From Hydractinia symbiolongicarpus (lineage: Eukaryota; Cnidaria; Hydrozoa; Anthoathecata; Hydractiniidae): a stretch of 64,000 bases of DNA. Every line of letters starts with the position of its first letter. Position 1 is the first letter of the stretch. A program made the translations under genes and the position numbers. The stretch covers positions 27,369,851 to 27,433,850 of the forward strand of contig NC_079877.1 of assembly GCF_029227915.1 (NCBI RefSeq), in the 5' to 3' direction. The notes beneath the pieces were generated by a model. That model worked only from the letters and a program-made list of their open reading frames with translations. It had not been told where the DNA came from and ran no database searches. Below, in pieces: positions 31,901 to 59,200 of this stretch.

Positions 31901-34900
31901 CAATTGTTGTGTTTTTATAAAGTTCTATTGTATTGTAGCTAGCTATATATAAAGGTTATTTGAAGAAACCCTTTGCCATTGCATAGCATTTATTTTTCAT
32001 GGCAATCGACTACAATAATGTGATATAATTAAAGCCATCACAACTTCTTTGTCGCAAAAAATGCAAAGCTGCGATTTTCTCTGAGTATATTGTCATAGCT
32101 ATACATTGTCTTTCTCCGTCAAGTAAAGAAATAAACGCAAGGTCCACAACCCTAAAACTAATGCCTATGTGCAATGGGAGCAGGATTGCAATTGGTCAGT
32201 ATTTTATAAAATAAGGCAAAAAACATAACATGTTGTGGTGATGTGCACAAAACATTTCAGGAGGGTTTTTCGGATATTCTTTGGGTATTTATTTCAGTTG
32301 TTTCTTTTTTGCATGAAAATTAAGGACAATAATGGAAGGTTTGAAATTCTTCTTCTTCTTCTTCTTCTTCTTCTTCTTCTTCTTCTTCTTCTTCTTCTTC
32401 TTCTTCTTCTTCTTCTTCTTCTTCTTCTTCTTCTTCTTCTTCTTCTTCTTCTTCTTCTTCTTCTTCTTCTTCTTCTTCTTCTTCTTCTTCTTCTTCTTCT
32501 TCTTCTTCTTCTTCTTCTTCTTCTTCTTCTTCTTCTTCTTCTTCTTCTTCTTCTTCTTCTTCTTCTTCTTCTTCTTCTTCTTCTTCTTCTTCTTCTTCTA
32601 TTTGTAAAAACAGGGTTTTATTTATCTTAGGCGAGGCAAATAACTTTAAAGCCATTTGCTTCTGTAGCCTAATCCCTTTATGTTAAAATGAACAGGAAGA
32701 CGGGACGTCAGTCTGCCATTTTGCCCTTATTTAAAATCCATACGAAAAATGACAACCTCCCAGTTCATACTTTGAAAATATGTTCAACTTTCAATTTTGT
32801 ATTTTAGTCTTTTCATGTGGCCTATGTGATTGTTAAAGCAGCAAATTCACCAAGACCAGGAGTTTGGGCATTAGAACGTTCTAATGATGGAGGAAAAACG
32901 TATTCACCATGGCATTACTTTGCGCCAAGCTCTGCAGAATGTAAACAATATTTTGGTGTTGATTCATATCTACCAATAGTACGAGATAACACAGTTCTGT
33001 GTTCAACCGAATATTCACAAATCCCACCATTTCAAAATGGAGAGGTATGCATGATGCGATCTTTCTGTATATAATTATTTGAATGTTATATAAATTTCCA
33101 GTTGAATAATTATAATTTAACTGTACAGTTAATAAATCAACTTTTATTCTTCTAGATTCACATTTCTCTTATTAATGGACGTCCTGGGTCTTCCAATTTT
33201 TCTTATAGCACAACATTACAGGTAAACCTGTCAATAAGCTAAATTATTTTAACATTTGATGCTTTTCTTACAAATAAGGTTTCAGTTAAGTTTCTCATCT
33301 TCTTTTGGTCTTTCAGGAATGGATCAGTGCTACAAATGTACGCCTTAGACTTATAGACATTAAAACTTTATTGACTGATTTACTTCCTCTTTCACTCGAT
33401 GATCCATCTGTGACAAGAAGGGTGAGTATATTATTTATTACTCCAGTACGGGCCACTTAGTTCATAACCAAATGCTATCAAAACTTCAACTTTCCACACT
33501 GAGTGAGAATTTCAATAAAACCAGGACAGTGTTATTAGAAGGAAGCATTTAAAAAAGGGGACATCTACAATATCATTATATTTGTGTGAAAGTAAGTTTT
33601 TTGTTTTCAGTGTACAGTACCGCTTGAATGTAATTTTACGTGTACGCGGGTTTTACAACATAATGTAATGATTTCATGTCTACATAAAGAACCTTCACAT
33701 ATCTTTTGTTTGCACACGAACTTGATTGCTTTCTATTGTTATCGTTGTGCGCGAGTCATATCAATAAGATTTGATGAATCCTTTTGTTGTTACATGTAAC
33801 AAAATGCATGTTATTGTTTAAAAATGTTGAAGATCGTGACTGCTATTAAAATATATTATTTTAGAAAGAAACATAGCAAAGGAACATAGCATGTTAAAGT
33901 TAAATCGTTCAATTGATTTTGTGTTATTAAAATTCTTATAATATTTAAAAGCCATTTAAACCTTTTAGTAATATTTCTTTAGGCATATTTATTAACATGC
34001 TAAACTTTTAAAAGTTCTTTTTACAAAAAGCAAAATTTAACAACGCAAACAGAAAAACCTTACTTTCAGGACTTTTCCCTTCATGATAAGATTTCGAAAA
34101 AAAATTAAATTTCAATACCGAAGAAAGAAAAAATCTATAAATAAAACTTTTGACGTTCTTGATAGATGAAAACACTCATTGCGAGAACATTTTGTTTTTG
34201 CAATGCGATCTAAAAAAGCATTGCTATTGTCGTTCTTTGCTGTTTTTCGTTCTTAAACTTTTAAAACACGGTCTAAAACAGCATTTCTATTGCCGCTTTT
34301 TGTTCTTAAACTTTTAAAACTTGATCTAAAAAAGCATTTCTATCACCTCTTTTAGTTCCTAAACTTTTAAAATGCGATCTAAATAAACATTTCTATCGCC
34401 ATTTTTTGTTCTTCAACTTTAAAATGCAATCTAAAAAAGCTTTTCTATCGCTGTTCTTCGTTCTTATATTTTTATAATGCGATCTAACAAAGCTTTTCTA
34501 TTGCTGTTCTTCGTTCTAAATTTTTTAAAACCGATCTAAAAAAAGCATTTCTATCGTGTTTTAAAAATTTATAAACGACTGGTTTAACATTGCCGTTCAT
34601 GAGTAAAAACAATAGATACTTAAATCTTTGTTAAATTTTATTTTCTTTCGTTGATCTCTTTTGTTAAATTTTATTTTCTTTCGTTGATCTCTTGACGACT
34701 ATAGCAATTAAATACAACAATGGTACACACACAGTTTACACCAGCTAATTAAATTTCACAAACAAGACATGAATTCTATTGATATCAAGATGCAAAAATA
34801 GCTCATGTATATATTTAACAATAGGTTAACAATAACAACAAAATTTCTGATGCTACTGAAATCTCATGCAAAGGTGATAACTATCGCGTACATGTAAAGT

Positions 34901-35240
34901 TACATTCGAGCGAATGGTATGCACTGCTGTGCACAATTTTTGTCTATTTTGATACTTCTGAAGTGAATACAGTATTGCTTGAAGTTATCATTACGTAAGC
35001 TTTAGATAATGTCGGGAGTTTCTTTTTATTATTACCCTGTTTTTATCAGGTAGTTACGTGAATCAACATTGGAACTCGTTTTGTTGTTGTTTATGTTTTG
35101 AAATATAACCAAAGCTTTAAACTGAACATTTGGACTGGCCTCAGGAAGAAAATCAGCAAACATAAGTGCAGCCCAATTTCTTTAGAGTATACTTTTAAAT
35201 TTCGTATTTAGTATTACTACTCCATTAAAGATATCTCAAT
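28959..35240 (+). CDS. LAMA: Copy B: signal peptide and LN domain
   Basis: Exons 28959-29330, 32808-33044, 33156-33221, 33317-33421 and the start of 35212-35419. Typical LN motifs are seen: LYCTLAGVQGKFG, SNRWWQSPPLSRG, VNITIDLGQ, then HVAYVIVKAANSPRPGVWALERS, FQNGE-IHISLINGRPG and YYYSIKDISIGGRCMCNG, which leads into the first LE repeat. LN domains of alpha, beta and gamma chains polymerise into the basement-membrane lattice. The first intron is 3477 nt and holds a long TTC tract; the fourth is 1790 nt and holds a 53-bp minisatellite. The equivalent exons of copy A are off the left edge. Confidence 0.94.
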
Positions 35241-38200
35241 TGGTGGTCGTTGTATGTGTAATGGCTTTGCAGACGAGTGTAAACCATCAAGTACCGTTGG
35301 AAAATATGAGTGCAATTGTCAATACAATACTGAGGGTCCAAGATGTGAGAGATGCAAGGAAGGATATGTTCAGAAAAGATGGCGTCCTAGAACAAAAATT
35401 GATAGATTTCAATGCGAAAGTAGGTTGTTTTCTTTAAGTATTGTGTTAAAAAAAATTAATTTTTGTCACATGCACAGACAAATCTAATTTTTGTAATAAT
35501 TCGAAGTCATTAGTGTTTTTTTCTTTCTATATATTAAAATACTAAAATATATGATTATTTTTCTTATTTTGTTTCACCAAAGAAGTTAAGGGCCTTGATT
35601 GAAAAGCTTAGTATTTTAGTAGAGGCACTGCAGCTTTTTTTTAGTTTCATTATTGTGCCAGCAATGAAATCTGATTTATAGAATGCAACTGTCATGGACA
35701 TAGTGATGAATGTGAATATGATGATGAAAAGGAACAAAGAAAACTCAGCTTAGACATTCATGGAGTTTATTCTGGTGGTGGTGCTTGTAAGAATTGTCAA
35801 CATAACACTTATGGAATCAACTGTGAAAAATGCAAACCGTTTTTCTATCGACCTGCTGGTGTGAAAATCACTGACGAAAATGCTTGTCAAGGTATTTTTC
35901 AGATTTCAAAATACAACTGACATATTTTATTGATGTCTATATAAAAAATTGATGTTGATTAAGCAATTCTATTTTTATTTTTACCATATTTTAAAAGTAT
36001 TGTTAGGCTTTATGTTTCAAATTTCGGTTTTATAACAATATAGTATAATATAAGAAAACAAATTATTAATATTAAAAAATGTAGAAGTTGGTCCATAAAA
36101 ACTAAAGCAAGTATATTACATTCTGAATGGGATCATTATCTACAATGCCTGGTAAGCTAGCTGTCCTTTCATTATTTACGTAAAATTTTCTGTCATGGAA
36201 CAAAATTGTAATTTTTTTTTATTGAAATGATACAATACAGGTTTTTAGAATTTTTTTCTGTAGAAAATACCTCTTTCTTTAAGAGTTTTAAAAAAATCCT
36301 TAAGGAAACTCAGATATTTGTTTATTTGTTCTTTTAGTTAAAAATTAATGTTATTCATCTCTAGGTTCATAAATTCACTTACAAGTGAGAGTAACAACCA
36401 CTAAATTTTTAAAAAATTTTTAACATAGATTTAAGTTTTATTTTCTGTGTTTTAATTTGTTTCTTCAGTTAAATAAAGCACATTAAACCTTTTAACTTGA
36501 AAAAAAGTTTGCCTTTCATTTTCAATTCAGATTCTATTTATATACTTGGGACAAATAAGCCAAGGTTTTTTGGTTTAGTTATAAGATCCAGCTGTTGCCA
36601 GTATATATGTTGAGTACGTTATTTGGCTTTTATTTTTTATTCAATAAAGAGTTAATTAAATAAAAGTTACCAAACATTGTTTACCCGAATAAACAATTTT
36701 TTTTTGTTTTAGCTTGCAACTGTAACACTACATATTCCTCCGGGTTATGTGCAGACGAAACTGGCCAGTGTGGATGTAAAAAAAGTTATGTTGGAAGATA
36801 TTGCAATCAGTGCAGAAAGGGTTATCACATGTTTCCTAATTGTAAACGTAAGTACTTTGTAATTGTTTTTGTGCACGTGGAATTTGTAAATCCCATTTTA
36901 CAATATCAGCTGGTATGGGTAACAATGTGATTCTTTAAAGAGAGTTTGCAACATTTTTTATCAAAGTACTGTAAGATACTGTGACTTTAACGAACGATTT
37001 TTGGCAGAAGTTTTATTTGGAGAACTTCACAAATTCTGTTATGTTTCAAGAGATAATATACAGAAATATTATAACAAACACTTGACACAATGGTTAAAAG
37101 TTACTGTGTGTTTCACAAATTTCTTCTTATTCTGTAAAACCTCTTTACCTTAGCATTGAATGATTTACATACATGGTTAATTATGACCGTTTATGACATT
37201 TTTTGTCAACAACAATACCAAGAAATGTGTGACTTTCGATATATTCCATTATTACATGTTGCATTGGGTTTAAAATTTATTTCTCAAAAATATTAGAACT
37301 TTCGTTTTCCCTGGGTGAATTACCATACCATTTAATTTTACCAATTAATTTATTAATTCATATATTAATGTTTACACTTAAAAAACAATACTGGATGTGG
37401 ATAATTTTTTCCTGAAAAGTATTTTTCAGTGACCTACTACATCAAATTTATTTCAAATTATAAATGACTTCTAGCTGTATATTCAGATATTAATAAGAGA
37501 ATCAAATTGCATCCTTGTTTAATTAACAAAAAGTTTGAATATTATAAATTAGTGGATTGAATTAATTTGAAGAATAAAGTGCACTGTGTCATATTCCACC
37601 AGTGGCTAGAGCCAATAGCTAAATCAGAATTGTTTAGTTTTTGTTATTATTGTGTAGCTATAGCTTACAATAAGAAGCTGATTAGACCACTAAAATGTTT
37701 TAATTAATCTGCCATCTATGTCAATTCTTATTTGCTTAAAGAGTCGATAAAAACATTGCCTGCTAAGCTATGTGAAAAAAATACTTATAATCCCTAACAG
37801 TAGTCTTATGCTTCGCTTGCAGCTTGTGATTGTGAATTGAGTGGTTCTCAAGACGGTGAATGCATTCCTGATCAAGATCTTGGCTGCAGATGTAAAGAAG
37901 GATACACTGGGTTTTTGTGTAATGAGTGCCGTCCTGGTTATTTTGGATATCCCAAATGTAGAGGTACATTTACATTTTGTTTGAATAAAATATTTATTTT
38001 CAATTTCACACCAGTCTTTATATTATTAGATTAATTACTGTACAATTTTAGCTTGTCAGTGTGAAACACGATCTGGTGCCATTGATAATAACTGTAATAG
38101 ATTGGATGGAAAATGCAGATGTAAAAATGGCTATGATGGAAGAACATGTGACAAATGCAAGAATGGACATTTTGATTTCCCTTTATGCAAAGGTAAAAAT

Positions 38201-41200
38201 TTTCAGCTATACAAAATATTAAACTACTAGTGTCAACTTTCTGCAGACAAATCCACAATATGTGTAAATTTATTTTTGCCAAAAGGTTTTTGTTTATTTT
38301 ATCCAAGCCGGAGATACTGCTTTTGATGTACTGTTATTTTTTTCAGTACAACAGTAAAACTGGTCAGTATTTCTTTTATTAGCAGACTGCATCTAATCTA
38401 AAGTATAATTGTTTTATGTAAACCAATAAAATTGAAGTCGTTTTTTAAAGTTGTTATCCGCAAGTCACAAAGGAAGGGAAAAAAAGATGTTCTAAGAGTT
38501 TTGGAATTCGTTATCGTTCAATTTGAATTAGTATTTTGTGTTTGAAAGAAAAAGATGGTTTTGGTCTTGTGTGCTATAAAAACCTGTTCTTTATTTTTTT
38601 GCGTTTTGCGGTGCCATTTTAGTAACGGTTAGTATGGCTCCATACAAACCCCAACCCCTAAAATTTTTCAAAATGATATAAACCACTGGATAAGATAACC
38701 TTTAATGCAAATGTGACATATTCTTTAAGGAAAGCAACGTTTTATGTTTAAGTGCTTTTTCTGTAGGGTGTACCTGTGATCCAAAAACAACTGTTGATTC
38801 AATTTGTGATAAAATATCTGGAGTTTGTCAATGCAAAACCAACTTTGAAGGACCAAACTGTGATAAATGTGCACATGGATTTCATGGATTTCCTTTGTGT
38901 CAACGTAAGTTTTACTTTGCAACAAGAGTTATTTTATTGTTGTGCTTGAGTGACACTTATGCTTCTCTTTAGCATGTGACTGTTCTTCTGGAGGCTCCCT
39001 TTCACAGAATTGTGACATCAACACTGGACAATGTCCATGTCGACCAAATTATGAAGACTTCAAATGTCAACGCTGTAAATCTGGCTATTATGGTTATCCA
39101 CAATGTACATCTTGTAAATGTAATAATCAAGGATCTCGTTCTCCTGACTGTAATGCTGAGAATGGTCAGTGCAGGTGTGCTTTACCATATGTTGGTAAAC
39201 GTTGCGATAGCTGTCCATCAGGCTTCTATGGTTTTCCAAATTGTAAACAATGTAATTGTAATCCAGCTGGAACTGGAACGCAATCTGGCGGCAACATCGG
39301 TGATTGCAGTTCCAACAATAACGTAAGGAATAAAATATTTGTGTAATGAAAAGGACAAATTGATATTTTATTTTGGTATTTTTGCCTTTGCTGATTGTAG
39401 AATGCCTATTTTTTGCATGTGTGTTTGTGTTTGCATGTTGTTGCATTCTTATTAGAAATTATTGTTTAATGAATTAAAAACAAAGTTTTATTTATTTTTA
39501 ATAAAGGTATAACAACACTTTTTATTCCAAAAGGGTCAATGCAAATGCAAACGCAATGTGAAGGGTTTGGAATGTTCAGAATGTAAAGCTGGTTACTACA
39601 ATTTGCAGGAATCAAATCCAGATGGATGTTCAGGTAAAATATTTATACAGGGTTTCTGATTTTAGGTTTTTGTAAAGATTTATATAGAAGATTTGTCAGG
39701 AGAATCAGGATGTGTTATTTTTGCTTAAAGTCTGAATTTGTTGAGATTATTTGATTAATTCACAATCTTTTTTGATTTTGTTAAAGACATATCACAATAA
39801 ATTTAGGATTTTTGGTTCATTAATATGAATCTTAACACCAATATAATTTAAAGGAACTATTAAATTGACACGAAATGGGGCAGTAAACTCTCTGTGGCTA
39901 TTTTTACTAAGTGGTATCCATAGTTCATAATCTTGAGATATAAACTCAAGTCATACTTCCTAAGGGCTTTAAATCTAAGGCTTGTCTGTCTAATTCTTTA
40001 GATTTGTGAAAGTGTTGATAACAGAATTTGTTAAAACTCTCACTGTGACCAAAAAACCTTTTCGTGAAAAGAGCATAATTTTTTTTCGCCAAGAGTCTTT
40101 TGCTATAATAGAAATAATTTTTTCTCCACTTTGTCCCTTATTAATTGAAAAAAAATATTGAATTTTATTTGCTGGACTTGCTATTACATTAAACATTTTA
40201 TGCTCTGATTTAAAATTTCCACCTAAAAATAAATGCAATGTTATAATTTTAGGTTGTGGGTGTGAACGAAGTGGTTCTATAAATGGTTTACTATCATGCT
40301 CAGAAGGTGGACAATGTAAATGTCGCGAGTTTGTGAAAGGATACAAGTGTATAGAATGTGAAGAAGGATATTTTGGTTTAAAGGATGCAAACCTGTTTGG
40401 TTGTGCAGGTTTGTTGTTTATCTTATGATGCTTTTTTGATGTTGTTTGTCATTTTCTATTACTAGTTTCAATTATTCATTTCAATTTAGGTTGCCATTGT
40501 GATAATGGTGGTTCTGTAGACACTAAATGCTCTAAAAACGATGGACAGTGCAGGTGTCGACCAAATATTTCAGGAAGACAATGTGACAAGTAATATTATT
40601 TCTATTTTAATTTTATTGATGTACATGCTGCAGAGTATTTAATGTTTATAACTCTTACTCATTCAGAGTTGATTGCAAGTTTTACTTTCCAACATTACAT
40701 CACATTCGAGCTGAAATGGAAGATGGCGTAACACCTGATGGTGATGCAGTTCGATTTGATTACCAAGTGCATAAATTTCCTGGATACACATGGAAAGGTT
40801 TTGTCTTCTTCAGTGATATTCAGGTCAGTAGTAATTCATGCTATTTTTGGCGACCATGGTATTTTTTAAATCAGCCTTTTTGAAATGGCTCAAATATCTT
40901 TGACTTTTGAAAATGGACCTGCCAAGGGAAAAAATTCTCTTGTATTCAATTGGTTTTCCTAATACCATATACTGCAAAAACTATCTGTAATAATTTTTAT
41001 TATTCTTGACTCCTAAATGTATAACGTTATAGCACCTCATATTTTGCTTTTCCTTCTTAATGCTTTATATGTTTTTTGGTGAAATATTTGCTTGTAATTT
41101 TAGCCTGCTGTTATTGTTTCTATTGATATTCCGAAATCGTCAAAGTATCTAATCATGTTTAAATATGTATTGAATCAAATTGCTCCGGCTAAAGAGCAAG

Positions 41201-44200
41201 TGTCTGCATTTAAAGGAATCACAGGCAAGATATTTATGCATAACAATCAATTTCTTAATAAGCATCAAGGTTTTTATACTTTATGTTATAATTGATACAT
41301 TATTCTCTTTAGACCAAAGCCGTTTAATTGGATTAGCAGAATTTTTATCAACGCAGAGAGGAGCAGGATTTACGAGTGCGTATACCACAGTAAAAGAATC
41401 AAATGGAAAAAGTTTGTATTTTTCATTGACAGCAGGCTCTTGGAAAATTAAACTTGAAGTTACAAATTCCCCGGTTTATGTGGTATGTACTACAAGTTCT
41501 GTTTTATTAAAATCTAGGTTATAAGAACAGTAAGACTGATATTTTTCCATAGTAAGAATGCACTTAACGTGAACTCCTTTCTACTATCTACAATTTCTAA
41601 AAAACATTATCCTTATCAGTTTTTTCCTTTTTACTAAAATACGTGTTTTTAGAATAACTTCATTGCTTCCAATCACATAAATTATCTATTTTGTAAATTT
41701 TTTCACATTATATATTTTGTGTTTCTTCTTATCAATATAATTTAATTTTGCAACTTTTTAGAAGAAAAGACATGAACATTTCAACCTAAAAAAAACTGTT
41801 TAAAAACTTGCAGATCTAGGCTCAGCAGAAATTTGGACTTTCTTGTAAAAAATTACAGAAAATTGCTTATTAAGTTTAGCAATTTAAACTCAATGTATAA
41901 TAAATTTTTGCTTACATTATTTTAAGGACCATGTAACAGTAATCCCTCAAGAATATTCTGATGCTAATGAACTTAAGAAGTCTGTTCAAACACCTTGTGA
42001 AGTTAATAAACAAGAAAAGTTTTGCAATCTGTACCAATACGTAACACTTGACGATTTTACGAAAGTTGAAGCAGAAAATCCTGGAAAGACAAGACAACGT
42101 GACCCTTTGCCATCTCTTTTTAACAATACTGCTATCCTATCAAAATTAGATTTCAAAGCTATGGTATTGCTAACACCAGAGACAGTATGTATATTTGTAT
42201 GTTTCACATTTTTTGTAAGTTTGTGGACTATACTTTATTTTTGTGTTTAAAATAGTCCACAAACAAATAATTCACTTTGTGAATCTGTATCTAGTTAGGA
42301 TCAAAATTGGTTGAGTTTGGATAAGGCTTGTGTGTTTGCTGCGAGTCTAAAAGAGTTTTCAATATTTTTTTATTCATTTTGAGGAGAGAAGAGATCACTG
42401 TGATTTAAATTTTTTTTATTCTGGTAAAATTTTTTGACTATTATTTTTCTACACAAAACATGTGTCAAAAAAATTTACGAGGCAGTAACTCATGATAAAA
42501 TAATTATAGTAATTGAATAGAGGTCAATTATAAAAACTTTGATGCATAAGGAAGGGCAGTATTCTAAGTATTTATATTGTGCTGTGAATAATAAAACTTA
42601 ACACTTGAGGCAACCTTTGTTTCATAGTAAATTTTTTTTGTAGAGACGACTTGACATGTATGTCTCAGTTCCAAACCCAGGGAAATATGTTGCGTTGATC
42701 CAGTATTATCACGATTCAAATGTCACAGAGTACCTTAATGTTTATATGAGGAGCAGGCACGATACCCAAACAGGAAAAGCATGGCTGTATAAGTGCAGGT
42801 ATGTAAGTTTGGTTTGTACATGGTGCATGTAATATCCTTCTTTCTATCAAAACAATGAGAAAAACCTAAATGAGAGGGGGTGAGGGGGGAGATAAATTAA
42901 AAAATGAAACTAGCTTTATACTATGTTGCAGGAAAAAGCAGCTATTTTTCATAGTCATTTTCTACAATTAGAAACTCTTTTTAAGTATTCAATTTGAACC
43001 TTTTTGACAGTAAAATATACTACAATTCGCATGGAGAATCGAAAGATTGTTTTATAAGGAAGCAATAACTATACAAACTACTTCTGTATTTGTATAATAT
43101 GAATATGAATTGTTGTTTTCGTTGTTAGTGCTCTCAAACTTTTGACTGTCTTTAACTTGATCTTTGTTTCAATCACAAAAACCAAGAAACTATTTTGTAA
43201 CGTCTTTAACTAGAAAAAAATGTACAAAATTTACTTTTCTAGATATACGTTTGGTTGTCGTCAAGCCATTTTGGAGCGTAACTTTCATGGAGTTGTAACA
43301 TTCAATATGGTTACTGTCAAAAAGTATTTGTTGACGTTTGTTTTAAGAGGCAATACGAATGTTGGATTAGTAAGTTTTGTACAGATTTATATTTTGGATC
43401 TTTGTTGCCAAGTTTAGTCCTTCTTTTACATAATGCTTCCTTGGCACGTTGGTCTTTGATTTTCAAACATAATATAACTTGTAATGAAGTCAGTTTAACC
43501 TAAAGTTTTATTTCCACGTGTACTTTATTTACCACAGGATTCTGTTGTTCTAATTCCCTATGATCAATGGCATTTGGATTATGTAACTCCGAAGATGTAC
43601 TGCACTACTAAAGATGGTAAATGCACCTCGAGTGAATACATGATTCCTAAAAATAGCAAGAAAGTAATATCAAATGATGGGACAATTGATGCTGTACCTA
43701 GTTACATCATTGACCCTAATGTAAAGGTTAAATACTTGAGACCGGGAGTTAATTTCCTTGATGTGCAAGGTAAGCCTACTTAAAAAAATAAGAAAAGGAA
43801 AAGATCTTTAGTTGTTGTTGTTATTGATGTTGCTTTTCATCACCTTAAATTTGTATGATTTTAGATGTTGGAGCAGGCCGGTTTTATGTCTTTATACATT
43901 ATTACCAACCAAATCACCCATCATTTTTGGCAAAGACTACTTTATATTCTGGTTCAGAAGCTGGAATTACTGGAGAAGTACATTTAGCATTCTGTCCTAA
44001 CCTTAATGGTTGTAGACAAAAAATTAGAAGCTCCAATGGTATTGATGTATTTGTCTTTGAGAATGTCAAATCAAGACTTCAGCTAGATATTGCAGCACAA
44101 CGAGACGCATGGATAGTATGTGTTTTTATAAGCCATGATGTATTTTTAGACTTGCCTATTACTTGTTATGTAAATTTTACTGTTTCTTCTTTTTAGGAGT

Positions 44201-47200
44201 ATCTATTGATTGTACCAGAGAACTCTTCAGATGTAGCATCTACAGCCTTGCATACCCCCAAGCAACTGCAACTGTCAAAGGACTTCCAAGAGCAATGTGG
44301 TTTTGATCATTATTATGTCAAGCCTGATGCAACAGGTTTCTGTCGTGACAGTGTCTTTAGCCTAACAACAGCATTCAATGAGGGTGCATTACCATGTAAT
44401 TGTAATTCTGAAGGTTCTATTTCAACTTCATGTGAATGCACAAAATTTGGAGGTCAATGTCCATGTAAGGAAAACGTGATTGGAAGAACATGCTCCAGAT
44501 GTAAAGTTGGTTATTATGGTTTTCCAAACTGCAAACGTGAGTTATTGTTTTTTTACTTTCTTGCAGTATTTGATTGGTATTGTTTTGTCAGACATTGACT
44601 CCCCAAATATGTAATAATTTCAGGGATTTTGTTATCATCAATATACGTTGCCTTATTTATTACATTGTTATTCAGCTAACACATTTCGGTTTTACATGAG
44701 TTTTTATTTGCAATTATTTATGTTGTTTTTTTATTTTGACTAATAAATTTCACCACTGTTTTTAGCTTGCAATTGTTCTAATTGTGATGATATTACGGGT
44801 CGTTGCACCTGTCCACCAGGAGTAATTGGTGAAAAATGTGATCAATGCAAGCCAGGCACATTCGGGTATGATCCTGTTATTGGGTGTCAGCCTTGTAATT
44901 GCGATAAGCAAGGAACTGGTACAGATGATGCTGTTTGTAATGTCATTACTGGTAAATGTCCTTGTAAAGAAAACTTTACATCTCGAAAATGTTCATCTTG
45001 TGCTCCTGGCTATTATAACTATCCAATATGCAAGAAGTGTGAATGTTTCCAAGGAGGAGTGACTTATGAAAAATGCAATAGTAAAACTGGTGAATGTTCA
45101 TGCCAGGTTAAATTTTTTTTTGCTTCACAGCATTTATTCTGTGCATTTAAATTATAAAATAATTTTCTCACAATTCATACTTATCTTATTGGGTGGTCAC
45201 ACCCAAAGCTGCTGAGTAACCCAAGAATAGAGACAATCCCTTAAACAGCTTAAAATTTGAACCCACAATATTATTGCACCTAAAGTCTCCTAAAATCGTT
45301 TATCCTGGCCTATTTTTTGTTCACAGTATTAATTCTCATCATGTTTAAGAAATTAACTAAAACTTGATTATTGTCAACTCTTAAGTTCCTCTTGTAACTT
45401 TGATCCTAAACCTTGTCCACTAACTCTCCTAAGATTGACAATGCATATATGCTGTTTTGGATTAACCATAATAAAACTGTCATCATTTTACGCTTAGGAA
45501 GATGCAGTCGGCGCTCAATGTAATGACTGTCCTGCAGGATTTTTCAAAACAAAAGATGTGAAGAGTACTCAACTTTGTACGAAATGTTGGTGCCAGGGAA
45601 GATCAACAACATGCAAAGAAGCGCAACTGTACAGGTAGCTCTTTTTGTCAAAGTGTCAAGTCTTAGTGTCAAAGTTTTAACCTCAAAATGCTAACATGTA
45701 ATAGTATCCACACACCATTCTAATTAGCACTTCTTAATTTGGAATTCATGATCTGACATGTGTTTTTTACAATAACATTAGAGGGAAGAAATGCTAAAAT
45801 TGTGAATTTTAATATGAGATATTTATTTCTGGAGTAGCGTGGCCTATTGGAGTTCTAAATTGTTAATGTACTTTTGAGTCTTAATTTGCATGGAAAATGT
45901 GATTTCTGACATTTTTATCTATAATTATAAGTGAATATACAAAGAATTAGGAGAACTAAACAAACTCTCAAAAGATATCAATGAGCGGATATTTATTTCC
46001 ATAGATCTACAATAGTTACTGCTACAGCAGGATGGAAGGTTTCATTGCCAAATATACCTTCCGCCTCCCGTAATCCAAGTAGTTCAAACATCGTCTACTG
46101 GATTGCACCAACAGAATTTTTGGGTGATCAAGTAAGTAAAAACTATAGGTTTTCCTTAGCACTGAGTATATTATTACTAATGTTGTGCTACATACTATTT
46201 TTTCACTTTAGTCTGCTTCTTATGGTGGAGAGCTCTACTACTTTTTCGAGTATACAACTAAGAGTGGTGAGACCAATATTCTAGATAACATCCCAGATGT
46301 TTTGATTAAGGTTAGTGTATTATTATTTCTTTAGAAAATGATATTCAGCGCTGAAAGTACTGGGATAGTTTACTCCTTGCTCAATTTTTTTTAGGGTGAA
46401 GAAATATCTATAAAATCCACTAAGCAAGTTTATAAATCACCAGATGCAGTTCATAGATTTCGAATAAGATTGCACCAGGTAAGAATAATAAAAATTTAAT
46501 ATCTTGTATACTCGTTGGTTATTGTCAATTTTTCTGACCGTGAATTTTTGTGATTATTTTAGAACTACTGGTCACTCAAGAACGGTTCAACAGTGTCACG
46601 TGAACAAATGCTTTCTGTTCTCTCAAAAGTTAAAAGTCTTCAAGTCCGTGCCAGTCATGATGCGAATGCCGGCACTTCCACTTTATGGAATATAACTATG
46701 GATGTAGCTGTGAAACATGGAACTGAATTAATATACGGTATTGAAAATTGTACTTGTCCAAGTGGCTATGCTGGACCTTCATGCTTGCAATGTGCTGTTG
46801 GTTTCACAAGACAAAAAGATGGAAACTGTGGAAAATGTGAATGTTTTGGTAGAAGCAATGTTTGTGATACTGAAACTGGAGCTTGCTATAATTGCACTGG
46901 AAACACTTATGGTAATCACGGTTTATAGACATGATTCTCTTTTCCTTTTTCCATTTCCCATTTTGAGCCTAATTGTTAAATTAATATAGCCATGATTTTT
47001 CTATTAAGGTGATCGATGCCAAAGTTGCAAGACTGGCTTCTATGGTAGTAAATGCAACCCTTGCGAATGTCCAGGCACAATGCCAGGTAACAATTTTGCT
47101 GACTCATGTGGTCTCGACGTTGTGTCTAGTCAGTTAGTATGTCAATGCAAGAAAGGATATGCTGGAATCAAATGTGAAAGATGTGCGGATGGTTATTATG

Positions 47201-50200
47201 GCCAACCCAACGTAACTGGTGGCAGTTGTAAACCTTGCTCATGTAATGACAATATTAATACAAATTTAACAGGTATGTCGTGGCGCAGATGTTTTTGGAA
47301 ACCAAATTTTTATTTAAAGTACTGGTATTTTTTATCAGCATGTTGTTATACTTCTTTATGTAGAAAGGTTCAGTTTCATTTAAGAAATAATCAATAATTA
47401 GATATCGTAATTATATTGTAATTATAGGCAATTGTGATGCAATTACAGGCGAGTGTTTTAAATGTATTATGAATACCCATGGGCCTAAATGTGAGAAATG
47501 CAAGCCTGGCTTTTATGGCGATGCTGTTACAAAGAAAAACTGTAAGAATTGCAAGTGCAGTCCGTGTGGATCAACCGTTCAAACTTGTGACAAAACTACT
47601 GGTCAGTGTAATTGTAAAAGAAATGTCGAGGGTTCTCAATGCCAACGTTGCAAGGTAAAACATTGTACATTTTACCTTGGTTGCGCTTTTTTATTCCTTT
47701 TGCACCAGCGATAGTTTCCTTTGCCCAATTCAAATTCAATATTTTCTTGTTTTCAGCCAAACACATGGAACTTTAATGCTTGTCAAGGATGCGAAGATTG
47801 CAGTTGTAGTGCTGCTTCAGAAAGTCAACAATGTGATGTTAAAACAGGACAGTGCAAATGTTTGAAGACTGTTATGGGAAGAAAATGTGATTGGTGCCAA
47901 TTAGGATATTTTAATTACTCCTCGGAGGGATGCCAAAGTAAGAATATTTTATTTGTCTGAAGAACTCAGTCAGATATTTTTGAATTAATGTGTAGAAAAT
48001 TATTCAAGCTGGCATTAGGATTTTGACTTATTACACTTACAAATGTAATGCAGATAGTGCAGTTTCTGACCACATAAAAACAATTTTTACACATTGCATG
48101 CAGGTGCAAAAGAAGTTGATTCATGTTTTACAAATTTCTTTCATTTTCAGAATGCAAGTGTGGAGGAAATTTCTGTGATGTAAAAACGGGAAGCTGTGAT
48201 TGTGGAATTTTGGGAGAGAAATGTACATTGTGCCCGCGTGGTTATATTATTGAGAATGGAAAGTGTGTCGAATGTGATAATTGTGTTCAAAATATTCTAA
48301 AGCGTGTCCACAGTCTAACTAAAAATATGACAGACATTAAGATAAACATTATTCCTGGCCCAGTTAGTAATTCATCCCTGCAAGATATTAAAGATGACAT
48401 AATAAGGTAAAAAATCTTTGAATCAACTATAATATTTCTCTTCAGAATATTTGGGTAACTAATAATTCTAATGTCTTCATGACAATATCCTACATAGTAC
48501 ATAATTATTTACTTTTTTAAGAAAAAAAGGTTTTTATGACATGCAACTTTTTGCATTAATAGATTGGTAAATAAAGCGAAGAAGTATGAAGATGATCTGG
48601 AAGTTTACAGAAAAGCTATTGGATTTGATAAATACAGAGGACTTTATGGAGACATGGGCTTTAATGCTGTAGAATCATTTAGAGGTTGTGAGTTTTCATC
48701 TTCACCTGGTGTACCGACTGCTAAGCCTACTACAACTAGACGGTCACTGTCCTCATCGGAAACCCTAACCATTCCTACTGATGATAGGACGACTACATCT
48801 AAAGTTACAACCAAAGCAGCAGTATCATCTGAAGAGACAACTAGTAATGGCTCAGATCTAGAAACAACTAAACAATTCACAACTCGCATCTCCAATGTTA
48901 ATGTAACTACTTCAACACCAACAGGCAACAGAAGCATCACTTATTCTACTAATGTAGCAGTAACCAGAAAAGCCACAACCTTATCGGGCACCTCTGTAAA
49001 ATTGACAACAAACACCTCTCCATCATTCCCTGACGAGGAAACCACAACTAACAACGTTATAGAAACAACATCAGCGACTTCATCATCAACAACAAGACCA
49101 GAAGTTACTACCAGTCAAAGAACTGTGGAAACAACAACCAAATCTATTGAACAAACTACAACTGAAATAGTAATTGGTCCAATACGTCAAAGTAACGTGT
49201 CTTCAGAGGCAACTAAAGCAACAGAAATAACTACTACAAGGGAAGATAGCACAGCTAATGCTGCCACAAGTACCGCTTCAAGAATTTCATCTGCAGGAGA
49301 TACTTCAACCAATAAAAATCTGGAAACGACGACTGCAGAATTTACAACTAGTGCATCTGAATTTACAACAACTGCAGCTGTATCAGTATCAAATGAGGTT
49401 ACATCAACAAAGGGTATTACGACATCACGATTAGATATATCTACAACTATCACAGAAGGTGGAACAACGACACCAGAGACAAATGCATTAGCATCATCAA
49501 CTGACAGAGAATCTACTACCGCCGAAGATTTAGAAACGACAGCAGATCAAGAGACAACAACACCAGCTGCTCCATTATCAACTACCCCTTTTGAATCAAG
49601 TACGCCAGATTTTAATTCAACTTCAGGTTTAAATTATACCTCTACTTCTGAGGTTATCTCTACAAGTAATGTTTCGCCCACTTCATCCTCGTTTGATAGT
49701 GAAACAACAACAAACACAGTTTCACAAACAACGCCATTCCCTGAATCCGCCACAACAACAACAGCAGAATTAGGTACAACTGAAGCAACTGTAAAGGAAA
49801 GAACAACAACACTGGCAAGTAATCAAGACACAACAAAGGATATCGGTGAAGAGACCACAACCGAAGCTGTTATTGACCCATTGCAAGCCGAGACAACGAC
49901 AGCCAAACGTCTACGTAAAAGAAGAGGTGTTGGTGCCCCAACTGGTAAGATATAATTTTCTCAGTTTTCTTACTGCTAAAGATGCCTAGATTAGTCACAA
50001 CTTAGACAACGAGTTTCAGAAACTTAATATATGTGCTTAAAACGTCTTATTTAAGTGATAGCTGTTGATAGTAAAACGATTTAGATATATATGTATTTTT
50101 GCTTGATAGAGAATAAGATAATTTTCTTGTTTATTTTATTCTATCTCGTAGCTAAGCGTTGTGGAGCATCCTTGGCAACTGTGTTGGATGACAGTGAATT

Positions 50201-53200
50201 GAAATTTAATGCTGTGCAAGAAAAAGTAAATAAACTTGAAGCAAATGCTTACCAATCTTCCCGAAATGCAACTGAAACAAAAGAAAGAGCCGAAGAACTG
50301 CTCAAATCTATCGAGAAATTAGTGACAGATATTATTGGTTAGTAAAATACTGGATTTAATTTTTACAGGATATTTTCATTAAATGAATTAAGCAGCAAGG
50401 GGAAAACACACTTTTATTGAGTAGTCATGCGTAAGATTAAACATGTTTCAACATTTGAGAAATGTCAAAAATTCGTAAATAGTATTCTACAAAAAAAAAT
50501 ATTAAAGATAATTATTTCCATTTGCTTGTGTAGTATTTATATTATTGTTGAATGTTTATCATTTTATGAACATAAAAAAGTGATCTTAAATCAATTTTTT
50601 TGAGATTTTTTATTCTGAAGTTTGCTTTAAAAATGTTTCTAAAGTTCTTCAATCAAGATGCCGTGAAAAAGAATCGATGTTAGTAAAGATCCTATTGTAA
50701 CATTTTCTCATCATAGAAAGAAAGATTGCATTTAATAACAACACTGGAACCAATGTATCTCTCATCGAAGCTGAAAAGATTTTAAAAGAATTACGAGAGA
50801 GGAACTTTACAACTGCACTGGTTAATGCTACTGAAGAAAAAGGACTTGCATTGAATGCTTCAGCTGTCTCTAAAGAGATGCTAAAACAAGCTAAACATGT
50901 GGAAGAAAGAGCTGTTAACTTTAACAACAGTCTTAAAGATTTTGTCCAAGCATTTAGAAATGTAAAAGCGTTAGGAAGAATAGTTAACGCTAATGCAGAC
51001 AATGCGACTGATATTGTTGGTATGGCAAAGACTATTGATTATGAGGTAAGGCTTGCTACCATCTGACTGATAAGAGATTTAGTCACAATTTTCGTATTTT
51101 GTGCTGAAATGTTTTTGTTATTTTTGGTATTTTTAGTTCCTCGTAAAAGAAGCCACAAATATATACAAACAAAATAATATTACATTAAAGAATGCTGGGA
51201 ATGTTCTGAAAATCGCTGAAGATATTTTTAACGTTGGGAAACAAGCATTTGATGTAAAGTGATTTTATCATTCTTCTAATCGTGTTGTTTTTAGTTGTAT
51301 ATTTTTTACTTGAGACGTAGTGATATTTTATTATTTTTTTAAATACAAATAGATACTGAACAACAAATATGGACCAATGGCTAGCCTATTAGAAGAACTT
51401 CGTGAATATGTAGCTAGTTTAAGAAGAGAATTGAAGATGACTGAAAAACCAGTCAATGATTCTGTTGTTCACGCGGTAAATCTTCGTGATCTTGCAGAGC
51501 AATTAAAAGAGCTTCTCCAAGACACCAAAAAGTTTGCAGAGGCTGCGATTCGTGCAGCGAAAGTTTACAGTGAAATTGTAGATGCGATCTACGAGGCACT
51601 TGCAGCAGCTAAAATGGCGAAAAATACTTCTATTGAAGCTGATTTAATGGTATGTCTGTTTTTATCATAATTATTAAGATTATTTTGTCTATTTCTTGTC
51701 ATTTTTTCAATTATAGGTTAATTAAATGGTACACTCCATAAAATTGTCCTAATTTTTCTTTATAACACATCTTATAGCAAAACAAATTTGTAGTAGCCCT
51801 TTTGTTGAATTTATGCGTAATTCGTGGTATATTTTGCACTTTGTTTAGTCAAAATAAGATACTGTTTGGGCTACAATAAACTTTAAACAATTCAAAAAAA
51901 ATTGTGATTAAAGTAAATTTTCCCAATTCTGTTTGGAACAGGAATTATTCTACAGCCTTGTCTATAGACCTGGTTCAATATTTTTTTAAAAATTACATGA
52001 CAAACTGTATTTTTCAAGGACATTTACTATTTACGTTTTTGGATTGCATCAATAATCACCATCAGGATGACGTAAAAGTTTAATTCAATATCTTCGTCAT
52101 ATTAAAATTTATAAGAAATACAGGTTTGATTTAATATTACTTATTCAGTAAATATCACGAAGTTTTTCGTAAGTGAGACTTACATTATCAGATAAAATTA
52201 AGTTAAACTAAAATTAAATGAAACTTAATTTTATCTGATGATGTAAATCTCACTTACAAAAAACTTTGTCATATTCAGTGAATAAATAATATTAAATCAA
52301 ATAAATCTTTTTTATTTTACTTTAAGTTTAATTTAAATTCCCAAAAGTACAGAAGTTATTACAATAAGTGTAGCAAAATATATAAAACCGAGATAAAAAA
52401 AAGAGCGTACAAACAAGCAGAAAAATATTTGTTGGAAGATTTTGTTAATATTGACTTCAATAATGTACAAACTAGGCAAACACTACGAAAGCACATGCAC
52501 TCAACACTAAAAGAAAGGGCAATGAAGTAAACAAAAAGACTGATAAACTAGTGAAGAGCATTAAAGAAACGCTAACATATTCACTGGAGGGTGTGAAAAA
52601 ACGCTCAAACGAATTAAGAGGTCTGCGTGAGATTATTCAAGGACGTATTGGTATTGTGAACGACGGTCTTCTGAAATTTAACAAAGAAAAAGATGTGGGT
52701 AAGTAATTTCTCAGACATTTGCTTGTCACCACGAGAAAACGATGGTGGTGCAAATTTATCTGTAATTAGATTTGTTGAAAGTCACTATTAAGGAATTTGT
52801 GTATAAATAGTTTTCTAGTCTATAAAATACAACCGATGTACTAATTATACAAAGTGTGACTTTAATATCTAGGCGAGAAAGCGAAAAATGTGTCTGCCAA
52901 AGCTGAGGTAGCTGCAGTTGCCGCAAATGCGGGTCAAGAATTTAACAAGAGAGTTCAGGTGTGTTTCTCTTATGTATTTTATTAAATTTATAAACTCCTA
53001 CCAAAGTAACAATATGCTAGTTCCCACGTTTATGGGGTCGAGAAAAAAGTCCAGGAAAGTCAGCCATTTTGCAACGCATGACAAAGAGAGCGGTTACCCT
53101 AGCAACTACCTGGAAGTTTTTCCTTATTATTTTAAAAAAACCACTGAGGCAAAAGTATTTATAATAAGATCATGTGCTTTTGACGAACGTCTGTTCCGAA

Positions 53201-56200
53201 ATAGATGGGTCGACCCAGCTTTAGAAATTAGTTCTATTTTGGCCGCAGGCGGTCCCTAATTGCCCACGCAGTAGATGACGTCAGTTATTTCCATCCGTTT
53301 CCAAGTTATGAAACCTCAGAAGTGCAATGCAATGACTTAATTTTAAAAATACTATTGACGGCAGTCGATTGCATTCATTTGTTAACTTTAAAAAAGTTAA
53401 CAAATGAAACATAAACGTTTTGGTTACATCAAAGGAAAAAAGAACACATCTACTTTGCCTGTCACAGAAACACTCGAAATGATATTTTGTGCCTTTTTGT
53501 CCGCCTGTTAACATGAAATAGTGAAATTATTTAGATGTGGCTTGAAGTAAAGCTGCATGACCACTATTTTAAATAGACAGACAGAAAACGGCTATTAACT
53601 TTTTGTAGGAACAGCTGGAAAAAGATAAGCAAATTATGGAGAAGTTGAGGACCGATATTAAAAATGAGAACAAGTTCATTAAAGGCGTTGAAAGTAACAT
53701 AACAGCGATAGAAAAAGGAGTTCTGACATTAAACACTACAATTCAAGCTCTGCACAAGAAGCATGCCGACATTGAAGAAACCATGAAGGTTCGTTACAAT
53801 GATGGAATCAAACTGATCAAATTTCTTTTAAGTAACTCCCTTAATCTTGTCGATCACATCAAGCTCACCATGCACATCAACAAATCTTCTGAACTGATCC
53901 TACCAACACCCGAAGAAGCCTACGATTCGTCCATTTCTAACGAAATATCAATCATATTTACTACCAACGATAGTGGCCCTCTGCTGTTTATTGGGAACAG
54001 TGATAGTTCCAGCAGACAAAAACGAGCTACTAGCAACGATGATAATGGCTTTCTGTCTTTGGAAGTGTTTAATCATAATGTTGTGTTCAGAGTTAAATTT
54101 AACTCTGGTCCCGTCGTGAAATTAGTAAATCCACTGCATATTAGCTATTCAGCTAAATTTAAGGATTATTACAAAGTTGTGGCGAGAAGGTAATGCGTTT
54201 AAAAGGTTTGATTTGAGTTCGTAGCTACCTGCCATGGTTTGAACGTTATTGTTTTGCGAGTGTGTGGTAGTTTGTTAAGCAGGTGTAATCAACCATACAG
54301 TGCTCTTAGCACTATTTTACTCCTCAAATATTTCTTGTTCTCAATTAGGACTGAAAATTACTTTTAAACTTAATAAATTTCAAAAATAAACAGTGATTGT
54401 TTCGTACTGTGCAACTTGTTTTTGACTCTTTTTATGCAGTGTAAAAAAATGCGATATTATTTTTCTTGTACGCCTTTAGGACGTTTGGTTATATACATCT
54501 GACTGTTTCTAAACTTGATCAGAACGCTTTAGAAGTAAACGTCACCACAGCAGAAGTGAATTCCACTGCTGTGTCACCACTATTGAATCTTGGTCAAAAC
54601 ATCCACTTTCTGATGGGTTCTATGCCATTAGGAAGGCAGTTGCCTTCTTCCGCGTTTGAGTCCGGACGTGTGTTCAATGGTGGTTTGGATGACTTCTTAT
54701 TTAATGGAAGAGTTATAGGATTGTGGCGTTGGAAGGTTAGTGATAATATAACTTTGTATATAACTTTGATACTACCAGTCTAAATATTTGTTTAACTTTT
54801 TTAACTACTTCACAGAGCGTAAACATGAATGAGGATGACTAATCTTAAACGATGAAGTATATTACTGTTGATTCAAATGCTAAGTTCGCATTGCACTAAG
54901 GCGGATTCACATTGTGAAAAAAAGGAGCGGTGTCGCACCACCATTACCGCGATATCTATTCACATCTGTTGTTTACAGATTTTTTCTTTTTTTATGTGAT
55001 AGAACTTTCAAAATTTATTTATATTGTGGGTTGGTCGTAAAATGAATATCGATCTTGTTTCATTTTTCGTTGTTTTTTGACGTATCTAATACTTGTTTCT
55101 ATAACAATAGCCGTTGTCTGTCTGTTTGCCTGTCTGTTACAAAAACACGAAATGCGATATATAAAGGACAGGCGACCCCGTGGATTTTTTTCGGGTTGAC
55201 GACTAGTATGTCATTAAACGGTAACTATTTCTGCACAATATATCGTTCCACTTTGTTGCTAATTGTTCAAATAGCCTATTTTAATTTTTTTTGCACTAGC
55301 ATGCGAAGCATATTGATGGTCTTGCTGGAAGAGCGAGACCTGCACCAACGGGAGAGTATTGTTTTAACGGCAACGGTTTTCTGATGGGTTATAAAAGAAG
55401 TGACAAAATGGGAGCTTCCAAGATATTACTGTCCTTTGTCACGCTTGAACCAGATGGTTTGCTCTTTCTTGGTGTGAACGCGCCTACCACCAATCCGGAT
55501 GGTACTTCTGCTTCAAAATCAAAATTATTCTATGCTCTCCAAATGCGAGACGGATACCTTGTCAGTACCTTCGACTTTGGCAATGGATTTCAAGAAATTA
55601 TTCATGACAACAATCAGGGCAAGGTGGATGATGGTCAAACGCATACCTTCAAAACAAAAAAATGGGCAAATGGTTTGTTGAGTATTTATATCGACCTAGT
55701 TGAAAAAGCCAGGAAGGCAACAGCAAAAGATAGTATCACATATCCCAAAGAATTTAAAGAACTTGAATTCAACCGATTTTATGTTGGTGGTGTACCACTC
55801 GATGGCTACGTGCCTCACGAGTAAGTTTTTTTTACGTTTTGAACCTTTTGAATCTTAGAATGTCTCACAAGAAAGTCTTTGAGCTTTAACGAGTAATTTT
55901 TTGGTTGACTGAGAATAATGTAAGAGCAATTAGACAGAATAAAATAAATCTTCATTATTACCGTTTTCTTACCTCTTTTTTAAATGCATAAAAGGTGTGA
56001 CTTTTTTCTAACAAGACACGGTTTGGTACGCTAAATATAAGTTTTCACTTTAGAAACATCACTACAAAAGGTTTCATCGGATGTATTGGTAGTTTGACCC
56101 TTATGAAGATTCGAAACATCAAATATTTCGACAATGGAAACAATTACAAGGAGGGATTTGAATTGGTAAAATGTTGTTATGAAAATCTGTGTCATTGTAA

Positions 56201-59200
56201 GCTTTACCGAGTTCGGGTTGTCTCTGTGAAAGTTAAACTCGCTATTTTGTGCACCCTTCGCGCAAAATAACAACTCGGCTACCATTTTAAAAAGTACATG
56301 GGTATTTTCATGTTAAAGTAGTTGCGTTATTAAATTTCTACGAAGAATTGTTATTACGTATTTTCCATTAGTTTTGTCGAACGTTTTCGTTACGGAAAGT
56401 TCTCTCGTGCAATTATATTTCCCAAAAAAGAAAGCAAAGCATTTTATGCATTAATATCCTGTTAATAAAATTTAATTCGATTCCAGGACGGTCATACGGC
56501 ATCCTTCCCTTCAGCTTCTTCTTATATGGACGTTCCTGCATGTAGCTTGGAACCAGGAGCTACTTTCGGGTTTGCTTTCCAAACTTACCAAAAAGATGGT
56601 GTCTTAGTTCATGCAAGTGGCAAGGTATCGTTTGTTGTTAATGAGAACTCCACGTCAATGTATGTTCTAACAAGTAAAGGTATTGGTTTATTTGTTTTTA
56701 GGATGCTGCGGTGGATATGATGTTGTTTGATAGTCAACTTAAAGTAGAAGTTGTCGTAAGCGGATCTACTTTTAAATTGATTAGTAATGTAGCAGGTGGA
56801 CTGTCAGATGGCAAGTGGCATGCTGTCTCTCTGCATCTAGAAGATGTTAGGTAGGATTTTACTTCTGCAAGGCATTACCTGGACTGTTTTTTTGCGTCTT
56901 CTGTTGATGGTGTAATCAATGTAAAATCAACGCTTGACTTCCTATAGATCAACTTACGCCCTGTTGCAAGAAATAAACTGTACATAAGTAAATGTGTCAA
57001 TGGCGTCAAAGGGCTTATTAGGGGAGGCATGAAGGGTTTCAAAACAGACAACGTTGGCGCAAGTATTGATACAAGGATTATCATTTTTACTGACATTCAA
57101 CCGGTGTGATACGCAGCCAGCGACTTCTACCGACTGATGACCCTTGCTTCACCTTGTTTTCTTGACATGCTTTGGTCACGAGCGTTACTTACTTGCAACC
57201 TTTATCATCATTTTTTTTCTCATTTTCTTAGCGCTTTACTCTATCTTGGCATTGATAAGGAATATATAAATTCAACGTCGATACTTCCTGCGCCAGGGAA
57301 GGTTATTGTTGCAGGTAAGATGAGCCTTGGTGGAGGGGCGAATAAGATGAGTTTTATTGGAAATATGCGCCATGTCCATTGTGAAAATCGGTAAGTTAAA
57401 GAACTGTTTTTTTTAGCAGAGAGAAGTGATATACAGTTTACCTGGTATGTTTTTTCTTTCTGTCTCTTTTAGTGAGATTAACTTGATAACAGCAAAGCGT
57501 TTTAACGGTGCAAAGTTTGGTCTTTCCAGATCAGTCCCACCAATTGCGTTAGTTCCCCCGCCAGTAGTAACGTCCCAACCTCAAACATTGTCTATTAAAA
57601 CTATGTCAAAAGCATCGTCTGTCGAGGGTATAAGTACCTTGGTTTTCACTACGGCCTTAACACCAACAAAAGTTATTGTACAGACAGATATGGCGACGAC
57701 TGTGATAGGAGACAGCACAGTCAAAACAACCCAGAAAACTCAGCAAGCTTCTACCGTTTCCCACACAACTACAGAAATGAAAATTACAGAAAAATTCTCT
57801 ACTAGCTATTCAACCCTCGCTAAAGATTCAACTAGCACCAGACAGCCCACGACAACAATACCGGTTGTCACCACAGACGCAGCAACCCCCTCGGAATCAA
57901 CAACAGTTGCTGAGACGACGACATCTGCAGGAACCAGAGCTGAAGAAACCACCACCACCATTCCTACCACCACTACCATTCCTACCACGACGGAAGCAGC
58001 AACCACCACCTCAACCACAACTAAAGGAACAACCATAATCGAGACCACTACCACCATTCCACCCACGACTATAACCACCACTTCATCAACCACGGCAGCC
58101 AAAACCGCACCCACACCATCTTGTAAAGGAAACATTCCAACCCCAATGAAAGATGCGATTGGATTTGGCTTTGGTGAAGGTGGAGAAAGCTATATAGAGT
58201 TTGGCATCAAAGCAGGGTCACTAGCACAAAAGTAGGTTACGAAATTTAGGCCAGTATTCGTTAGGTTCTGAAATTTTGACATTTTTTTCACTATTCAGTG
58301 GTAGTAGCCTCCTAAGATTATTATGCGTTATCCTGGTATTGATCTGGTTATTATCTGTATCTGCGTCAATTGTATCTTTCTTATTGACTTGGTTACCCAG
58401 CATTGAAGACCAGTTTTAAGTGTAGGTAAACTGCGCTACTAGAAGCAGTATACTCAATGCTGCACATCTATTGGATTATTTATAATAGAGCTTTTCCGCA
58501 ACAGTCGTTCAAATGACCACAGGGCACAGCCTATTGTAACCCATCACTCGACATTTTCTAAAATTTACTCTTCGTGATTGTAATAAATACAAGTTTATTT
58601 CCATATAAGCCAGGAAAAATACGCATTTTAGCGTGTGCTACTTTATTTAGGTCGCAATTTGAATTTTTCTTCTACACTTTGGAACCGAATGGCTTATTGT
58701 TTACTGTTAATATGAAAACACAATATGATTATGAGGCTGTCTATCTAAACAACGGCAAGATAACGTATTTATTCAATGCCGGTGGCGGCTCCAAGCCTAT
58801 AACAAGTTCAGCAACATATAATGATGGCAAATGGCACAAAGTATCGACAGGACGGTTAAAAACTGCAGGTTTGACGTCAATTTTTTCTACCTTTGTCAAT
58901 TTCTACCATTGAACATTTAAGTAGTGTAACGGCCACATCGTATCAAGTTTGCATTCTTCAATAGAAATGAAACCCCTACCCAGTTAAATTATTCTTTATC
59001 TGCAGGTCATCTAACCATCGACGACGGTTCTGTATTAAAAGCCACATCTCCTGGAACACTATCAAATGTTGATAAAATCACAAAAGTATTCTTCGGAGGT
59101 TATCCATTGGGGGAGATTGTACCTGATATAATTCCAGTAAGTTGATTTTTTTTCTATGTTTAAGCTTCAAGTGTTAATCTAATCAATGTGCAATAGTATA

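What the first reader, a model, noticed from the sequence alone, without database searches (positions are those of the whole stretch)
48563..49944. Mucin-like insert with a basic cleavage motif inside the start of the laminin coiled coil
The coil-start CxxC (CDNC) and a short helix are followed by about 415 Thr/Ser-rich residues, then KRLRKRRG, then the coil resumes with a lone Cys. Laminin alpha chains normally run straight from CxxC into heptads. Cleavage at the motif would separate the polymerising short arm from the coil and receptor-binding LG domains, a new way to tune laminin; alternatively the insert acts as a glycosylated stalk. Copy A has the same arrangement (LRKKRGG, 12786-12803), so the design predates the duplication.
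Basis: partly seen in the sequence, partly recalled or inferred. Interest (0 to 1): 0.85.

Follow-up and report, generated by a model that had tools for sequence, protein, structure and literature searches.

The report
Mucin-like, convertase-site insert in laminin
Three neighbouring laminin genes in this animal carry a long threonine-rich stretch ending in a predicted protease cutting site, bracketed by two single cysteines, at the start of laminin's rod, which suggests a laminin chain that may be cut but held together.

Summary
Exon 48563-49944 of gene B encodes 41 residues, one Cys, a 408-residue Thr/Ser-rich insert (T+S 44%) and RKRR|G; the next exon opens with another lone Cys. Gene A (100 residues, RKKR|G) and a third tandem laminin-alpha gene C found outside the window (200 residues, RKRR|D) share the plan: Cys at exon residue 42, the site 6-7 residues before the exon end, a PLQxETT element before it. 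A-C and B-C inserts align no better than shuffled sequence, so the Cys and the site are what persists. None of 131 parsable laminin-alpha-like proteins from the searches (of 182) has such a Thr/Ser-rich stretch there; the only named cnidarian alpha, a coral, lacks insert and Cys pair. Preferred reading: a convertase-nicked hinge, its halves stapled by the Cys pair, leaving a free-ended Thr-rich tail. Cleavage, glycosylation and disulfide are inferred. Skipping the exon would shift the frame. New variant of a known kind.

The parts
28959..60558 (+). Laminin alpha gene B, from the start codon before the LN domain to the stop of the last LG block found
   Evidence: LN exons guided by the coral protein; blocks shared with gene A; LF to LG1 model without stops; middle and LG exons not all modelled to the base
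48273..48284 (+). CDNC, the coil-start CxxC of gene B
48563..49944 (+). Exon of gene B with lead segment, Cys, Thr/Ser-rich insert and basic site; split codons at both ends, 1382 nt
48687..48689 (+). Cys before the insert (FRGC), residue 42 of the exon in A, B and C
48690..49913 (+). 408-residue Thr/Ser-rich insert of gene B
49875..49898 (+). DPLQAETT, element shared by the three genes just before the site
49914..49925 (+). RKRR, predicted proprotein-convertase site of gene B (followed by G)
50160..50162 (+). Cys after the insert (AKRC), the only Cys after the site in the modelled part (to LG1)
11789..11800 (+). CDNC of gene A
12362..12822 (+). Homologous exon of gene A: 461 nt, 100-residue insert
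12486..12488 (+). Cys before the insert, gene A
12789..12800 (+). RKKR site of gene A (followed by G)
13072..13074 (+). Cys after the insert, gene A
54014..54025 (+). Second R-X-K/R-R motif (RQKR) in LG1 of gene B
   Evidence: same loop in the coral
15579..15590 (+). Second motif (RRRR) in LG1 of gene A

Best explanation
The three tandem laminin alpha chains carry a convertase-cleavable hinge at the start of the long arm. A flexible break that many laminin alphas have shortly after the coil-start CxxC was expanded into a Thr-rich, probably O-glycosylated segment of 100, 408 or 200 residues (genes A, B, C). A furin-type convertase cuts after RK(K/R)R during secretion. The two halves stay together through the coiled coil with beta and gamma and through a disulfide between the Cys before the insert and the Cys just after the cut; the short arm also stays on beta and gamma through CxxC. 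The outcome is a nicked, stapled alpha chain with a free-ended Thr-rich tail at the arm/rod junction, whose length differs between paralogues and could set flexibility or spacing there. Shown: anatomy, conservation of Cys and site in three paralogues, absence in the other proteins that could be examined. Inferred: cleavage, the disulfide, O-glycosylation, the expansion of an older break, the mechanical role.
For: Same plan in three genes: Cys at exon residue 42, R-X-K/R-R ending 6-7 residues before the exon end, exon length 2 modulo 3, PLQxETT before the site. Insert alignments A-C and B-C score within the range of 200 shuffles (65 against mean 60.3, maximum 83; 130 against mean 124.7, maximum 157), while the lead segments are 20/42 and 19/42 identical. 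The site varies in codons but keeps R-K-K/R-R. A and B each have only two R-X-K/R-R motifs in the modelled LF-to-LG1 stretch, this one and one in LG1. The insert exon holds one Cys in all three genes, and in A and B only one more follows in the modelled part. Purifying selection A/B: dN/dS 0.13 before the insert, 0.23 in the coil after it. The copy A exon, modelled from one sequence (mean pLDDT 53.9), shows a helix at residues 3-18 and no secondary structure around the site, which is compatible with an exposed site.
Against: No proteomics or cDNA. Nothing shows that the Cys pair bonds with itself rather than with beta or gamma, and 10 of 131 other parsed proteins also have two or more Cys within 300 residues of the CxxC. 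O-glycosylation is inferred from composition only; proline is low (4-6%). A-B inserts align better than shuffled (109 against maximum 96), so the insert is not free of constraint and the site's persistence stands out less between those two. The site region itself has A/B dN/dS 0.23 on 29 codons, no lower than the coil. Whether the genome encodes a furin could not be checked.
Confidence: 0.48

Rival explanations
1. Uncleaved stalk: the insert stays intact and loops out from the arm/rod junction as a glycosylated spacer closed at its base by the Cys pair; the basic run is incidental or rarely used.
For: Thr/Ser-rich composition, no predicted structure, Cys at both ends; Thr-rich stretches without the motif lie further on in A and B and near residue 3230 of Drosophila LanA.
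Against: The site is kept in three paralogues although most of the insert sequence is not.
Confidence: 0.22
2. One reading: cutting releases the polymerising short arm from the coil and LG domains.
For: The site lies between short arm and rod.
Against: CxxC (the interchain knot in laminins, recalled) is N-terminal to the site, so the alpha short arm remains on beta and gamma; the flanking Cys pair could hold the halves.
Confidence: 0.1
3. Neutral low-complexity expansion: a Thr-rich stretch grew in a tolerant loop and does nothing.
For: Length varies 100-408 and most of the sequence is not conserved; the same neighbourhood holds a WAP domain in an unnamed laminin alpha (P0061).
Against: Cys, site and PLQxETT element kept in three old paralogues (A/B dS about 0.9-1.4).
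Confidence: 0.15
4. Gene-model artefact: the exon is intronic or not spliced as drawn.
Against: Long open frame with splice signals in three genes, C read on its own and agreeing.
Confidence: 0.03

Closest known systems
Laminin alpha chains (coral P0001, Drosophila LanA P0114, vertebrate alpha 3 and 5)
   Same: LN domain, LE repeats, coil-start CxxC, coil, LG domains; a Pro or Gly break after the CxxC in 89 of 131 parsed
   Different: No 40-residue window reaching 36% Thr+Ser within 300 residues of the CxxC in any of 131 parsed of 182; the coral lacks the Cys pair
Furin-processed laminin alpha 2 (laminin-211/221)
   Same: Proteolytic processing of a laminin alpha chain, by furin according to a title in the reference list of PMC11260871 (Smirnov 2002)
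   Different: Cleaved within LG3 (PMC11260871, passages), not at the coil start
Dystroglycan
   Same: Mucin-like region beside an R-x-RR furin site (PMC4582122, passages)
   Different: A laminin receptor, not a laminin; [quoted passage not shown]
Thr-rich LG3-LG4 linkers of laminin alphas
   Same: Thr-rich segment in a laminin alpha; in A, B, C and at the corresponding region of Drosophila LanA (assignment to LG3-LG4 by position and recall)
   Different: Other position; seen in bilaterians

Membership tests
Laminin alpha chain | N-terminal LN domain | tested here: met
   LN exons found for A, B and C; residues 15-400 of B are 57% identical to coral laminin alpha over the whole region
Laminin alpha chain | Laminin EGF repeats before the coil | tested here: met
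   PF00053 35.9 bits, cut-off 21, in the piece of B tested
Laminin alpha chain | Coil-start CxxC and coiled coil (Laminin_I) | tested here: inconclusive
   CDNC present; Laminin_I 22.6 bits, below the cut-off 34.6
Laminin alpha chain | C-terminal LG domains | tested here: inconclusive
   Laminin_G_2 15.3 bits on the LG1 fragment tested, below 22.9; the full array was not scanned, blocks shared by A and B run to 60552
Proprotein-convertase substrate | R-X-K/R-R consensus | tested here: met
   RKRR, RKKR, RKRR in B, A, C
Proprotein-convertase substrate | Exposed, unstructured site | tested here: inconclusive
   No secondary structure there in the copy A model, one sequence, low confidence
Proprotein-convertase substrate | Cleavage observed | not testable with these tools
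   needs protein
Mucin domain | Ser/Thr-rich, Cys-free segment | tested here: met
   T+S 44% in B, 38% in A, 40% in C
Mucin domain | Tandem repeats and high proline | tested here: not met
   One two-copy 21-nt repeat in B (A and C not scanned); P 4-6%
Mucin domain | O-glycosylation | not testable with these tools
   inferred from composition

The most novel reading that the evidence does not exclude
The three tandem laminin alpha chains of this animal are obligately two-piece: every molecule is nicked by a convertase at the arm/rod junction and held by a dedicated, redox-sensitive disulfide staple, with a paralogue-specific Thr-rich tail that sets the mechanics of the matrix sheet.
Probability: 0.25. 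Interest if true: 0.78.

Novelty: new variant of a known kind. Interest (0 to 1): 0.57.

Why it matters
The start of the laminin rod is generally drawn as a fixed trimer junction (recalled). A protease-cleavable, Cys-bracketed hinge kept in three paralogues would be a new control point for laminin flexibility, would show that large inserts are tolerated at a definite place in the coil, and comes with a simple biochemical test (reducing against non-reducing gels).

Tried and rejected
Exon skipping: would shift the frame, as the exon is 2 modulo 3 in all three genes. Release of the short arm: down-weighted (CxxC upstream, Cys pair). Tandem-repeat origin of the B insert: one two-copy repeat only. 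A solved structure of the coil start: none matched the coral piece at E up to 1. Pfam: no family in the B exon at E up to 0.1. Literature: searches listed no paper whose title or abstract start describes a mucin-like insert or convertase site at the laminin coil start; searches found no paper at all. Only open-licence papers are held; I saw passages of four (PMC11260871, PMC12549020, PMC6079037, PMC4582122) and listings of the rest. Protein searches: one search gave 1 hit (the coral) of 63 candidates; one search listed 120 of 2161 hits; one search listed 120 of 156. Among those listed the only named cnidarians are one laminin alpha (Montipora) and one beta chain (Dendronephthya); unnamed entries may include others. 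Spread within Cnidaria is therefore untested. The species is not identified by any search; a hydrozoan is a guess.

Rows dropped before counts: 28 Branchiostoma proteins (P0002-P0029, immunoglobulin and EGF domains) of 232; then 22 beta chains and other proteins, a dynein fusion and an usherin among them; of the remaining 182, 131 could be parsed at the CxxC with 350 residues following and 51 could not. One search scanned the whole length of the proteins of the first two searches for Thr/Ser-rich stretches: those it found lie near residues 3040-4100, none near the coil start. Of 154 parsed of 204, beta chains included, 9 carry R-X-K/R-R within 450 residues of the CxxC, at +38, +221, +301 to +307, +397 or +432, none with a Thr/Ser-rich stretch there. 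Ten of 131 have two or more Cys in the 300 residues after the CxxC, 29 have one, so cysteines there are not unique. The parser found nothing in the other proteins and was replaced.

Full report
Setting. The window is G000:C3:27369851-27433850 of a 480.9 Mb, 76-contig genome. It holds two laminin alpha genes on the + strand: A, whose LN start lies upstream of the window at C3:27365289, and B (28959 to about 60558). A third, C, follows from C3:27435182 to about 27478000. A 95-residue coil-start query matched only these three genes in the genome at E <= 0.001, two exons each; such counts are lower bounds. Whether further laminin alphas exist elsewhere did not complete.

Anatomy. Exons of A and B were modelled together under the condition of equal phases and AG/GT sites, so their agreement in phase is partly built in; the LF-to-LG1 stretch reads through without stops in both. 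Gene C was read on its own and has the same phases at this exon. In B it is 87 residues from CDNC (48273-48284) to the single Cys (48687-48689), both included. Then come 408 residues rich in Thr and Ser, RKRR (49914-49925), six residues to the exon end, and a Cys within the first four codons of the next exon (50160-50162). Gene A has 100 insert residues and RKKR; gene C has 200 and RKRR. In A and B the second Cys stands ten residues after the last Arg of the site.

What is conserved. In all three genes the Cys is residue 42 of the exon, the site ends 6-7 residues before the exon end, the exon leaves remainder 2 modulo 3, and a PLQxETT element precedes the site. The inserts of A and C, and of B and C, align within the range of 200 shuffles; A and B align above it. 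A/B dN/dS is 0.13 before the insert, 0.12 from CDNC to the Cys, 0.30 in the alignable part of the insert, 0.23 at the site region (29 codons only) and 0.23 in the following coil.

Comparison. Coral laminin alpha P0001 has no insert, no Cys in the 300 residues after its CxxC and no motif there, but a Gly/Ser-containing stretch at the aligned place. Of 182 laminin-alpha-like proteins, 131 could be parsed; none has a 40-residue window reaching 36% Thr+Ser in the 300 residues after the CxxC (highest 35%), against a maximum of 45% in A and 57.5% in B. An unnamed laminin alpha, P0061, has a short Thr/Pro-containing linker at this place and a WAP domain about 60 residues further on. So the region just after the coil start seems to accept inserts; 89 of 131 proteins have a Pro, GG or GxG there, a loose criterion without a control.

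Mechanism. The motif fits the convertase consensus and lies where the model of copy A shows no secondary structure, from one sequence at mean pLDDT 53.9. The CxxC knot is N-terminal to the cut, so the alpha short arm should remain on beta and gamma (established laminin biochemistry, recalled; paper searches found no text for it). The rod half would be held by the coil and, I infer, by the Cys on each side of the insert, the only cysteines between the CxxC and the end of the modelled part in LG1 in A and B (not checked through the whole coil of C). This predicts one piece on non-reducing and two on reducing gels.

Known processing. Short arms and LG domains of laminins are processed: laminin-332 is extensively truncated and laminin-211/221 is cleaved within LG3 (PMC11260871, passages). 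Dystroglycan combines a furin site and a mucin-like region (PMC4582122, passages). I know of no laminin with either at the coil start, and the searches named under Tried and rejected showed none.

Verdict. A real elaboration of laminin alpha, shared by this animal's three tandem genes and not found described in the searches made; its cleavage and function remain to be shown.

Noticed in passing
15579-15590 and 54014-54025; C3:27467651-27468328: A second R-X-K/R-R motif in an early LG1 loop in A (RRRR), B (RQKR) and C (RRRR). The loop pattern found such a motif in 5 of 101 parsed proteins (coral, a crayfish, three aphid relatives); ticks and a damselfly show one in the same context among the hand-picked lines of that call.
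   Followed up: partly
18755-19288 and 57567-58169: Thr-rich stretches before LG4 in A and B, and a longer one in C, as near residue 3230 of Drosophila LanA.
   Followed up: partly
C3:27435182-27478000 (L007-L011): A third tandem laminin alpha gene beyond the window end.
   Followed up: yes
P0061: Unnamed laminin alpha with a WAP domain inside the coiled coil (Pfam PF00095 22.7 bits, cut-off 20.8).
   Followed up: partly
24192-24842 (+) and 25827-26630 (-): Two 7TM-receptor-like reading frames between A and B; only the second passes the 7tm_1 cut-off.
   Followed up: partly
about 32343-32600: Long TTC array in a gene B intron; the poly-Leu and poly-Glu frames over it are mechanical.
   Followed up: no
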